A stretch of 64,000 nt of DNA from Synechococcus sp. CC9616 (lineage in GTDB: Bacteria; Cyanobacteriota; Cyanobacteriia; PCC-6307; Cyanobiaceae). Where the stretch lies: contig NZ_KI911558.1 of NCBI RefSeq assembly GCF_000515235.1, forward strand, positions 2,021,466-2,085,465. The letters are read 5' to 3'. Within the stretch, counting starts at the first letter, position 1. Each line of letters starts with the position of its first letter. Shown here piece after piece: positions 44,381-46,563 of the stretch. Under the pieces are notes generated by a model. The model saw only the letters and a list, made by a program, of their open reading frames with translations. It did no database searches and was not told the origin of the DNA. Made by a program: the position numbers and the translations under genes.

Positions 44381-44794
44381 TCAGGCGGCCTGGAAGCTGA
44401 GGCCTGAATCATCCGGTCGCTCCCTTTCGCCGGCTAGCTGCCGTTTTGCGTCGGGCTCTGCCCACTGCAGCAGCCGCAGTGCCAGACGAAGGTCGCCGTC
44501 CATCCAGGCGCGAATGGCCATCGCCCGGCGTGGGTCGTAAAACCTCTGTCTCCGGTACCACTCGAAGACGTCCGAATCAGACTTGTGACCGTTGCAAGAC
44601 AGACAGGCCGGCACGCAATTTTCAGTCACACTCAGACCACCGCGACAGCGGGGCAAAATATGATCAATTGATTCGGAAGGTTTGCCACAATAAATACAAC
44701 TTTTACCAGTAAATGTATGTAGAGATTGTCTCCATCGTCGAACGCGCAACTTGGGGCAGAGTTCATCGAGAAAAACTGCGTCCTTGTTATGCAT
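44381..44794 (-). CDS. HNH endonuclease
   Basis: 137 residues from ATG 44794 (MHNKDAVFLD). HNH fold motifs are complete: CIYC (33-36), SIDHILPRCRGG with Asp44-His45, and CLSCNGHKSD with Asn68 and His70. The two CxxC pairs bind structural zinc. A C-terminal helical segment (RAMAIRAWMDGDLRLALRLL) follows. It is divergent from the SNF2 helicase at 45007. GC in 44641-44760 is about 43-45 percent, lower than neighbours. Its target is unknown; defence and repair roles are both possible. Confidence 0.88.
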   Translation of the reverse strand: MHNKDAVFLDELCPKLRVRRWRQSLHTFTGKSCIYCGKPSESIDHILPRCRGGLSVTENCVPACLSCNGHKSDSDVFEWYRRQRFYDPRRAMAIRAWMDGDLRLALRLLQWAEPDAKRQLAGERERPDDSGLSFQAA

Positions 44795-45006
44795 CCGAGG
44801 ATCTCGGTTAATCAAATTTTGCCGTGAAAGCAGATGGCGTCAATGTGTCGAGCGCTGCATTTTCGTCAATGCTCTTGCGGAGTGATATTGATTGATTGCG
44901 AGAAACTTGTCGATCGTCTGTGAACCTCTAAGATGTTTGTTTGTGGGCAACGTTTGCTCCGTCATTGACGTCCCACTGTTGCTATCTCGAGCTCTCACCC
45001 TCTGGA

Positions 45007-46563
45007 ATGGTCAGAGTGGTGAGTCCGTTCGACGCGGTGACGCAGGCACAGTTGCGTCGGGTGAGGCCCAGAGGATGTTGGCGCGGACAACGCAAGGGTT
45101 GGGAGTTCCCGATGGCGTCAGTGGATGCCTTGCAGTCGGCCCTGGGCACGCGTTTCCACATTCGTGACGACTTAAAGCAGTGGATGGCCTGGAGCCATCA
45201 ACCGCTTCCGCCTCTGCCTCCCCACCGTGAGCTGATTGCCGCTGCCGATCTGGAGGAACCCCTTGAGGATGGGCGGCGGCCTCTGGCACATCAACGATCC
45301 GGCGCGCGTTGGTTGCTGGCGCGGCGCGGTGCTGTTCTTGCCGATGAGATGGGACTTGGCAAGACCCTCACGGCTCTGTTGGCCGCCAGGGCCCTAGCCC
45401 GTTGTGCGTCCCTGAGGATCCTGGTGGTGGCCCCTGTGGGTCTGCATGCCCACTGGCAACGCGAGGCGGATGCAGTGGCGCAGGTTGTGGAGCTGGTCAG
45501 CTGGGCACGACTTCCCACCGAGCTTCCCGAGGCCGGCACGGTGTTGTTGGTGGATGAGGCTCATTTCGCCCAGACCTTGCAGGCGCAACGCACGGAAGCA
45601 TTGCTTCGGCTCGCCCGTCACCCGCGCCTGCGAGCGATCTGGATGCTGACCGGTACGCCAATGAAGAACGGTCGGCCGAAGCAGCTGTTTCCTTTGTTGG
45701 CGGCCATCGATCATCCAATCGCGCGTGATCAGCAGCGCTTTGAGGAGCAGTACTGCCAGGGTCATTGGAGTGAGCGGCAAGGTCGTTATCGCCAGTGGCA
45801 GGCCGATGGAGCCAGTCAGCTGGATGAGCTTCGTCAGCTGACTCGGCCGTTGATTCTCCATCGCCGTAAGCAGAAGGTGATTGGGCTGCCTCCCAAGCAA
45901 CGTCGGCACATCCCGATTGCGCTGGCCCAAGCTGAATTAATCGGTTTCGACCATCGCGTCGATCTTGTGGTGGAGGACTATCGATACAGGGTGCGAAAGG
46001 GACAGGTCCGATCTGACGCTGAATCACTGGCAGTGCTCACGTCGCTGCGTCGGATTGCTGCTGAGTTCAAGTTGCCTGCCGTTCGGACCCTTGTGGACGA
46101 GCTTCGATTCAGTGGTGAGGCTGTCGTTTTGTTCAGCGGTTTTGTTGACCCATTGATGCTGCTGCATCAGCAGATTGGAGGGGAGCTCTTAACCGGTCGC
46201 CAGCGCCCATCTGAACGTCAGCAGGCTGTTGACCGATTTCAATGCGGCGATAGCGATCTGCTGCTCGCGACCTATGGGACCGGTGGACTCGGCTTCACCC
46301 TGCATCGGGCCCGCCATGTTGTGTTGCTCGAACGTCCCTGGACACCGGGGGACGTTGAACAGGCCGAGGATCGCTGCCATCGCCTTGGAATGACGGGGGA
46401 TCTGATCTGCCATTGGATGCAGCTTGGACCCGCTGATCAGTTGGTGGATGGACTGGTGGCCAGCAAGGCTCAGCAGATCGAAATTCTGTTGGGTCCTCGA
46501 CGATTGGCAGTGGCCCGTCAGCCGCTGGCGTCCATGGTTCGAAGCTGTTTGCAGGTGGCCTGA
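45007..46563 (+). CDS. SNF2-family helicase with HARP-like N-terminal domain
   Basis: 518 residues from ATG 45007. The first 50 residues (SPFDAVTQAQLRRVRPRG, then KGWEFPM) match the pattern of the HARP domain found in the fork-remodelling helicase SMARCAL1. The motor follows: motif I DEMGLGKT (113-120), DEAH (183-186), LTGTPMKNGRP (214-224), then the second lobe with VVLFSGFVDP, LLATYGTGGLGFTL and QAEDRCHRLGMTG. Likely an ATP-dependent DNA translocase or annealing helicase. The HNH nuclease gene is divergent at 44794. Its 3' end overlaps the convergent gene at 46518-46868 by 46 bases. TTG 44941 is a possible earlier start. Confidence 0.85.
   Translation: MVRVVSPFDAVTQAQLRRVRPRGCWRGQRKGWEFPMASVDALQSALGTRFHIRDDLKQWMAWSHQPLPPLPPHRELIAAADLEEPLEDGRRPLAHQRSGARWLLARRGAVLADEMGLGKTLTALLAARALARCASLRILVVAPVGLHAHWQREADAVAQVVELVSWARLPTELPEAGTVLLVDEAHFAQTLQAQRTEALLRLARHPRLRAIWMLTGTPMKNGRPKQLFPLLAAIDHPIARDQQRFEEQYCQGHWSERQGRYRQWQADGASQLDELRQLTRPLILHRRKQKVIGLPPKQRRHIPIALAQAELIGFDHRVDLVVEDYRYRVRKGQVRSDAESLAVLTSLRRIAAEFKLPAVRTLVDELRFSGEAVVLFSGFVDPLMLLHQQIGGELLTGRQRPSERQQAVDRFQCGDSDLLLATYGTGGLGFTLHRARHVVLLERPWTPGDVEQAEDRCHRLGMTGDLICHWMQLGPADQLVDGLVASKAQQIEILLGPRRLAVARQPLASMVRSCLQVA

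What the first reader, a model, noticed from the sequence alone, without database searches (positions are those of the whole stretch)
44381..46563. Divergent HNH nuclease and HARP-like SNF2 helicase: a split ZRANB3-like pair
Seen in sequence: a 137-aa HNH protein with complete zinc and DH...N/H motifs is divergent from a 518-aa SNF2 ATPase whose first 50 residues carry the W-x-F signature of a HARP domain. Known: human SMARCAL1 joins HARP to SNF2, and ZRANB3 joins SNF2 to HNH; both remodel stalled replication forks. Inference: the bacterial pair may do fork remodelling with cleavage, or act in defence. The nuclease gene is lower in GC than its neighbours, a hint of transfer.
Basis: partly seen in the sequence, partly recalled or inferred. 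Interest (0 to 1): 0.6.

Follow-up and report, generated by a model that had tools for sequence, protein, structure and literature searches.

The report
Bacterial SMARCAL1-like motor beside HNH nuclease
Picocyanobacteria carry, as old inherited genes, a small DNA motor built like the core of the human fork-repair protein SMARCAL1 and related to phage and plasmid helicases, next to a separate nuclease that many relatives keep without the motor.

Summary
Both genes are real and where stated: a 137-aa HNH nuclease (44381-44794, minus) divergent from an SNF2 motor (plus, to 46563). The motor probably starts upstream of the assumed ATG, at TTG 44941 (540 aa): an upstream in-frame peptide with invariant Leu and Gly (121 of 121 anchored loci) forms the first strand of its N-terminal domain. 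That domain is HARP-like at family level: Pfam HARP misses the window protein and the plasmid relatives, but matches 29 of 47 phage-contig relatives at the same place, and family profiles align. Minimal HARP+SNF2 is the reported active core of SMARCAL1, so a DNA-rewinding or fork-remodelling motor is the best reading. 'Split ZRANB3 pair' is weak. The nuclease lacks the ZRANB3 insert, persists without the motor in 39 of 201 family genomes (2 the other way), and the whole neighbourhood is equally syntenic. Recent transfer is refuted. The motor's nearest relatives lie on cyanobacterial plasmids and in phages, some with tandem HARP matches, which bears on a printed view that SMARCAL1 is a choanozoan innovation. 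Joint action is possible but unproven.

The parts
44381..44794 (-). HNH nuclease gene, 137 aa; CxxC (33,36), D44-H45, N59, CxxC (64,67), N68, K71; conserved C-terminal WYRxQxFYDPRRAMAxRAW region
44795..44940 (.). divergent intergenic region (if SNF2 starts at 44941)
44839..44851 (+). conserved element GTCAATGTGTCGA, containing the TTGAC of a possible -35 box of the HNH promoter (read on the minus strand); the only exact copy in the genome
   Evidence: the promoter reading is inference
44941..46563 (+). HARP-like + SNF2 translocase gene, 540 aa from TTG 44941 (518 aa if ATG 45007 were used)
44983..45186 (+). HARP-like N-terminal domain (residues about 15-82 of 540; beta-beta-alpha-beta-beta-alpha in the model), the first strand lying upstream of ATG 45007
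45268..46500 (+). SNF2 motor (residues about 110-520): Walker A MGLGKT, DEAH, QAEDRCHR

Best explanation
The plus-strand gene encodes a minimal HARP-like + SNF2 double-stranded-DNA translocase. Shown by computation: a complete SNF2 motor with a small beta-beta-alpha-beta-beta-alpha domain directly in front of it, related by profile to the HARP-type domain of phage SNF2 helicases. Inferred: as in SMARCAL1, the HARP-like domain binds branched or single-strand/double-strand junction DNA and the motor rewinds or regresses it, so the enzyme processes stalled forks or displaced strands, beside RecG rather than in its place. Shown: the gene is one old clade, widespread in Cyanobiaceae, nearest to helicases of cyanobacterial plasmids and phages, the plasmid ones carrying an extra N-terminal region that it lacks. 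Inferred: an ancestor captured it from such an element. The divergent HNH gene is a separate, more strongly conserved nuclease of the zinc-ribbon HNH type with cyanophage relatives. It most likely nicks damaged or branched DNA on its own account, and may, but need not, act on DNA made by the motor.
For: PF07443 rings in 29 of 52 records that hold SNF2 relatives (E<=0.1 per record): 29 of 47 virus records, one over the curated cut-off. The hits lie in the SNF2 frame, 99-121 residues before Walker A in single or last copies (31 of 32 hits placed). L272 and L213 reach E about 1e-4 against all of Pfam, under the cut-off. A profile of these phage domains hits residues 1-58 in 52 of 52 Cyanobiaceae proteins (E<=10), 34 of them above the best of 1040 shuffled decoys; profile-profile probability 96%, E 3e-9 for one comparison. 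AlphaFold2 model, mean pLDDT 91, bb-a-bb-a before the motor. Walker A 82, DEAH 83, QAE(D/G)RCHR 80 of 83 rows, some near-copies. dN/dS 0.06-0.12 for SNF2, 0.03-0.07 for HNH in 4 pairs, dS partly saturated. Tree: 43 Cyanobiaceae rows one clade, 100/100. Plasmid relatives, 36-38% over 96% of the query. HARP2 plus SNF2 domain reported as sufficient for annealing-helicase activity (PMC4035279, passages). RecG over its cut-off in 25 of 26 genomes. HNH: best solved match 4h9d, a weak nickase preferring AP-site DNA (PMC3765158, abstract).
Against: The window protein has no Pfam HARP hit, and neither do the five plasmid records, four of them its nearest relatives. Its score against the phage profile is weak (8.7 bits; best decoy 7.3), and 18 of 52 family members score below the best decoy. 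A second profile hit the N-terminus of 30 of 31 rows but not the window's, with a best decoy of 12.7 bits. Fold searches were filled by the motor, so no solved HARP was compared. No expression, genetic or biochemical data. 'Captured from phage or plasmid' rests on a midpoint-rooted tree with a long-branch warning.
Confidence: 0.57

Rival explanations
1. The two genes form a functional pair: the motor exposes or regresses forks and the HNH protein, recruited in trans, cuts them (a two-gene analogue of ZRANB3).
For: SNF2 lies beside a divergent HNH in 52 of 52 fetched and 74 of 74 scanned family loci (the sets overlap). Cross-table: both 134, SNF2 only 2, HNH only 39, neither 26 of 201. Genome G025 lacks both genes while the genes on either side remain.
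Against: Neighbours are as syntenic: epimerase 48 of 48, DUF6554 48 of 48, pdxA 47 of 48. HNH-SNF2 rate covariation ranks only 6th of 28 neighbour pairs. No related HNH is adjacent in 6 non-family genome loci and 80 viral loci, some with short flanks. HNH survives alone in small genomes. In G184 (55% complete) SNF2 and epimerase meet on one contig with no HNH between, at a junction that also truncates the epimerase, so a real loss or a misassembly; in G120 the HNH side lies beyond the contig end. No ZRANB3-type insert.
Confidence: 0.2
2. An anti-phage defence pair (helicase plus nuclease).
For: Helicase-nuclease pairs are common in defence (established knowledge); SNF2 motor similarity to ZorD, DpdE and DrmD models, E down to 1.5e-25; one paper labels a SNF2 gene of Antarctic cyanobacterial MAGs 'drmD' (PMC9716671, passages), not shown to be this gene.
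Against: Far under NCBIfam cut-offs (58 against 1500 bits for ZorD, 53 against 950 for DrmD, 41 against 500 for DpdE); syntenic, vertically inherited and under purifying selection, unlike defence islands.
Confidence: 0.06
3. The N-terminal domain only looks HARP-like (a generic W-x-F-P hairpin), and the protein is an ordinary SNF2 DNA translocase of unknown substrate.
For: No direct Pfam HARP hit in the window protein or in the plasmid relatives; weak individual scores.
Against: 52 of 52 hits at the same N-terminal place, profile-profile E 3e-9, and a transitive link through phage proteins with PF07443 matches at the same place.
Confidence: 0.19
4. The HNH gene is a recently transferred or homing element.
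For: Lower GC and GC3; cyanophage relatives at 34-44%.
Against: Strong HNH homologue in 173 of 201 family genomes, in the same synteny block, 63-94% identical in the aligned sets, dN/dS 0.03-0.07.
Confidence: 0.02

Closest known systems
SMARCAL1 (HARP), human/Drosophila annealing helicase
   Same: HARP-type domain at the N-terminal border of an SNF2 motor, the reported minimal active module; three phage relatives have two HARP matches, as vertebrates have two domains
   Different: No room for an RPA-binding motif (about 14 residues before the first strand); bacterial; window protein not detected by Pfam HARP; activity untested
ZRANB3 (AH2), and the 'bacterial ZRANB3-like proteins' and self-standing HNH nucleases named in a figure legend of PMC5481773 (passages)
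   Same: SNF2 motor and an HNH nuclease side by side; the HNH is of the zinc-ribbon type related to 4H9D, a named structural neighbour of ZRANB3 HNH
   Different: Two separate divergent genes, HARP-like domain in front of the motor, no HNH helical insert, nuclease kept without the motor; the bacterial ZRANB3-like proteins were not compared here
Phage DNA helicase family PHROG 62 and SNF2 helicases of cyanobacterial plasmids (Nostoc PCC 7524, Synechococcus PCC 7502, Microcystis NIES-88, Nostoc SO-36)
   Same: Homology over the motor and most of the N-terminal domain (E=2.5e-61 to phrog_62, residues 46-523; 36-38% identity to the plasmid proteins)
   Different: The plasmid proteins have about 110-215 more N-terminal residues than the 540-aa form; no related HNH adjacent
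Gmet_0936 (PDB 4h9d) HNH nickase and cyanophage HNH proteins (phrog_2214)
   Same: Zinc-ribbon HNH of like layout, E=2.5e-7 to 4h9d, E=1e-20 to phrog_2214
   Different: Own C-terminal motif and fixed chromosomal position

Membership tests
SMARCAL1/HARP subfamily of SNF2 | SNF2 ATPase with complete motifs | tested here: met
SMARCAL1/HARP subfamily of SNF2 | Pfam HARP (PF07443) recognised in the protein itself | tested here: not met
   no hit (own genome); so it is called HARP-like and not filed as a SMARCAL1 member
SMARCAL1/HARP subfamily of SNF2 | HARP-type domain next to the motor, by profile through relatives | tested here: met
   a second profile gave weaker results
SMARCAL1/HARP subfamily of SNF2 | structural match to a solved HARP domain | tested here: inconclusive
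   fold lists filled by the motor
SMARCAL1/HARP subfamily of SNF2 | N-terminal RPA-binding motif | tested here: not met
   only about 14 residues before the first strand; bacteria have no RPA (established knowledge)
SMARCAL1/HARP subfamily of SNF2 | ATP-driven annealing or fork regression | not testable with these tools
   -
ZRANB3 | SNF2 and HNH in one chain | tested here: not met
   two divergent genes in 52 of 52 fetched and 74 of 74 scanned family loci
ZRANB3 | HNH helical insert before D-H (human residues about 975-1013) | tested here: not met
   7 residues between CxxC and D44 in the window protein, conserved in the aligned rows; insert from PMC5481773 passages; a length argument, not a structural comparison
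HNH endonuclease (PF01844) | over Pfam cut-off with catalytic and zinc residues | tested here: met
   34.6 bits against 21.4; 59 of 59 intact
Known defence helicases (ZorD, DrmD, DpdE) | over curated NCBIfam cut-off | tested here: not met
   58 of 1500, 53 of 950 and 41 of 500 bits

The most novel reading that the evidence does not exclude
The HARP-SNF2 annealing helicase is not an animal-lineage invention but an old module of phages and plasmids; picocyanobacteria hold a domesticated bacterial SMARCAL1 analogue that works as a two-gene fork-processing unit with its own HNH nuclease, dispensed with (the motor first) during genome streamlining of Prochlorococcus.
Probability: 0.16. Interest if true: 0.75.

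Novelty: new variant of a known kind. Interest (0 to 1): 0.42.

Why it matters
A 2026 review calls SMARCAL1 most likely a choanozoan innovation (PMC12841045, passages). HARP-type domains directly in front of SNF2 motors in phages, and by profile in plasmid and chromosomal cyanobacterial relatives, with tandem matches in some phages, would move the module's history outside animals and offer small, expressible enzymes to study how HARP steers a motor to forks. For marine picocyanobacteria it names a candidate repair enzyme lost from small (Prochlorococcus-type) genomes and a conserved nuclease that was kept.

Tried and rejected
Recent transfer of HNH: rejected. Adjacency as proof of a pair: rejected after the neighbour control and the covariation test. 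Defence: held unlikely on NCBIfam scores and inheritance; PADLOC shows motor similarity only. SNF2 as a replacement of RecG: rejected, RecG over its cut-off in 25 of 26. A regulon of the conserved intergenic element: one exact and four one-mismatch copies in the genome; dropped. HNH model: mean pLDDT 61.6, not used. Fold searches: no HARP row was seen in the lists, which tells nothing either way. Fusion of the SNF2 family to HNH: looked for in 7 viral members only; the long ones, L229 and L251, carry LAGLIDADG or intein-type insertions, not HNH. HNH near viral or plasmid SNF2: Pfam HNH in 11 of 36 records. Two lie within about 1 kb: in L216 a 110-aa HNH ORF behind the motor with one ORF between, and in L235 a 248-aa HNH-bearing ORF on the other strand upstream of the motor with one ORF between; neither matches our HNH at E<=1e-4. 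L201 and L217 have a match to our HNH 5-6 kb from SNF2. Literature: searches listed no title or abstract start reporting HARP in phages or cyanobacteria; most listed papers were not read, and the library is open-licence only. A Prochlorococcus paper reports a UV-raised HNH gene, PMM1528 (PMC2921402, passages); whether it is this family is not known.

Rows dropped before counts: in the 201-genome table, 15 genomes with only a weak HNH match (E about 1e-8 to 1e-10) were counted as lacking this HNH; 5 of 126 loci without my anchor pattern were left out of the start-codon survey; one phage domain (L225) was left out of the HARP profile; 10 of 48 loci lacking a gene and 8 near-identical ones were left out of the covariation test; 26 of the 74 family loci with short flanks were left out of the neighbour control.

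Full report
Observation. On the minus strand 44794-44381 is a 137-aa HNH protein, and on the plus strand an SNF2 ATPase ends at 46563. Pfam gives HNH 34.6 bits (cut-off 21.4), SNF2-rel_dom 87.1 and Helicase_C 48.6, all over cut-off. The genome holds one other SNF2 frame and one other HNH frame at E<=0.001.

The start of the SNF2 gene needs correcting. Reading upstream in frame from ATG 45007, the 121 of 126 family loci that could be anchored all show Leu at -11 and Gly at -7 relative to the PFD motif, and Cys at -15 in 92 of 121 (first seen; some loci are near-copies). By eye this peptide aligns with the strand before 'YIAAFSPYD' in the plasmid relatives. In the AlphaFold2 model of the 540-aa form (mean pLDDT 91, 66-row alignment) residues 15-18 form the first strand of the N-terminal domain, upstream of Met23, which is the ATG at 45007. 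The likely start is TTG 44941, leaving 146 nt between the genes. Oddly, 22 of 121 loci have no ATG, GTG or TTG far enough upstream to include that strand; this stays unexplained.

Is the domain HARP? Directly, no: PF07443 does not hit the window protein, nor anything in its genome at E<=1, nor any of a first 24-row set at E<=10. Through relatives, yes. In 52 records that hold SNF2 relatives, PF07443 matches 29 (E<=0.1 per record): 29 of 47 virus records, one over the curated cut-off, and none of 5 plasmids. Mapped to proteins, 31 of 32 hits could be placed against Walker A: single or last copies begin 99-121 residues before it, and L270, L271 and L272 have a second copy 189-206 residues before it. 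L272 and L213 score E about 1e-4 against all of Pfam, under the cut-off; 20 of 66 rows of the larger alignment match PF07443 at E<=10, which ones is not shown beyond the window row, which does not. A profile of the phage domains hits the first 58 residues of 52 of 52 Cyanobiaceae proteins at E<=10; 1040 shuffled decoys gave 11 scattered hits, the best at 7.3 bits, against 8.7 for the window protein; 34 of the 52 exceed that decoy and 18 do not. Profile-profile comparison gives 96% probability, E 3e-9 for the single comparison, or 93% and 3e-7 with full-length proteins. Against this, a second profile made with longer N-termini hit 30 of 31 rows but not the window's, with a best decoy of 12.7 bits. 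The family-level case is good; the single-sequence case is weak. The model shows a bb-a-bb-a unit, but the PDB and viral fold lists were filled by the motor and did not test it.

Distribution. In 201 Cyanobiaceae genomes the SNF2 gene is in 136 and a strong HNH homologue in 173 (15 with only a weak match and 13 with none set aside). My cross-table: both 134, SNF2 only 2 (G120, G184, incomplete assemblies), HNH only 39 (all in genomes of 2.0 Mb or less, several with the locus at a contig end), neither 26. The two SNF2-only cases were read: in G120 the SNF2 piece ends at the contig edge on the HNH side; in G184 SNF2 and the epimerase gene meet on one contig with no HNH between, at a junction where the epimerase match begins only at residue 44, so either a true loss or a misassembly. 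In 146 genomes of the class, 130 of them outside the family by my count of the listing, SNF2 gave one weak motor-only match (E<=1e-20) and HNH none (E<=1e-15). In five small genomes of 99-100% completeness, HNH and genes on both sides remain while SNF2 and the small gene behind it give no match; in G025 HNH and SNF2 are gone and the genes on either side remain. Genome lengths of some HNH-only genomes equal those I recall for Prochlorococcus SS120, MIT9211, MIT9301 and MIT9312 (recalled, not from a call).

Adjacency. HNH is divergent from SNF2 in 52 of 52 fetched family loci and 74 of 74 family loci of the genome-contig scan (that scan kept the best 80 of 197 and shares contigs with the first set). 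This looks striking, but in the 48 of those 74 loci with wide flanks the epimerase and DUF6554 genes are present in 48, pdxA in 47, accB in 46: the block as a whole is syntenic. Rate covariation of HNH with SNF2, corrected for the other genes, ranks 6th of 28 pairs. In 6 non-family genome loci and 80 viral loci no relative of our HNH is adjacent (two lie 5-6 kb away; some loci have short flanks). A functional pair is thus possible, mainly from the one-sided dependence and the G025 co-deletion, but not shown.

Origin. Relatives covering nearly the whole 518-aa form lie on plasmids of Nostoc (two), Synechococcus PCC 7502 and Microcystis (36-38% identity), with extra N-terminal residues and, in two of the four, replication or recombination genes such as dnaB, ERF or SSB in the stretch shown, and in many virus contigs (348 candidates, best 80 kept). 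In the tree 43 Cyanobiaceae rows form one clade (100/100), placed among mobile sequences under a midpoint root, with a long-branch warning. Both genes are under purifying selection (HNH dN/dS 0.03-0.07, SNF2 0.06-0.12 in 4 pairs, dS above 1 in most). The HNH has lower GC3 than most neighbours but is more conserved than SNF2, epimerase and pdxA (medians 73, 62, 49 and 61% identity to the window), so recent transfer is out.

Function. [quoted passage not shown] Our protein has the layout of this minimal module. RecG is present over its cut-off in 25 of 26 genomes tested, so the motor is an addition, not a substitute; the exception is G025, the genome lacking both genes. The HNH's best solved relative is Gmet_0936/4h9d, a weak Mn-dependent nickase preferring AP-site DNA and unlikely a junction resolvase by itself (PMC3765158, abstract and section 19). 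ZRANB3's HNH has 4H9D and T4 endonuclease VII as closest structural relatives and needs a helical insert that ends just before its D-H pair (PMC5481773, passages); our HNH has 7 residues between CxxC and D-H. So 'works like SMARCAL1' is the best reading of the motor, and 'is a split ZRANB3' is not.

Verdict. An old, inherited HARP-like SNF2 motor of phage/plasmid kinship, beside a conserved HNH nuclease. New variant of a known kind. The wider point, HARP-SNF2 in phages and bacteria with tandem HARP matches in some, is the interesting part, given a review that calls SMARCAL1 most likely a choanozoan innovation (PMC12841045, passages); I did not test the eukaryotic link by phylogeny.

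Noticed in passing
window 44941-45006 and 121 related loci: The SNF2 gene must start upstream of ATG 45007, yet 22 of 121 family loci have no ATG, GTG or TTG far enough upstream; a near-cognate start (ATT, ATC, CTG) or another initiation mode may be used.
   Followed up: partly
L270, L271, L272 (viral contigs): Phage SNF2 helicases with two PF07443 matches in tandem before the motor, the architecture described for vertebrate SMARCAL1.
   Followed up: partly
L229:3937-7269 and L251:5575-8481: Viral SNF2 helicases of this family are interrupted or extended by LAGLIDADG or intein-type sequences.
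   Followed up: no
L300 (G025) and its genome: The genome that lacks both HNH and SNF2 also lacks a RecG hit over cut-off (its only match has the place and length of an Mfd-type protein, my reading); assembly 95% complete.
   Followed up: partly
L320 (G184), about 2480-2510: SNF2 and epimerase meet without HNH, both matches truncated at the junction: a rare SNF2-only locus or a misassembly.
   Followed up: partly
window 44839-44851: Conserved element GTCAATGTGTCGA upstream of HNH in SNF2 carriers; the GTCAAT core is kept in the 10 HNH-only loci examined.
   Followed up: partly
L077-L081: Five genomes of 1.6-1.7 Mb carry a second, 60-64% identical HNH copy elsewhere, with an in-frame TAA in two of the five.
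   Followed up: no
window 46518-46563: The SNF2 3' end overlaps a convergent 116-aa gene by 46 nt; both give no match in the five small genomes examined.
   Followed up: partly
L082-L088: A different open frame in seven congeners gives weak (13-14 bit) PF07443 matches.
   Followed up: no
L123: A contig filed as a Bifidobacterium breve MAG carries the Cyanobiaceae HNH-SNF2 locus, so the label or bin is probably wrong.
   Followed up: no
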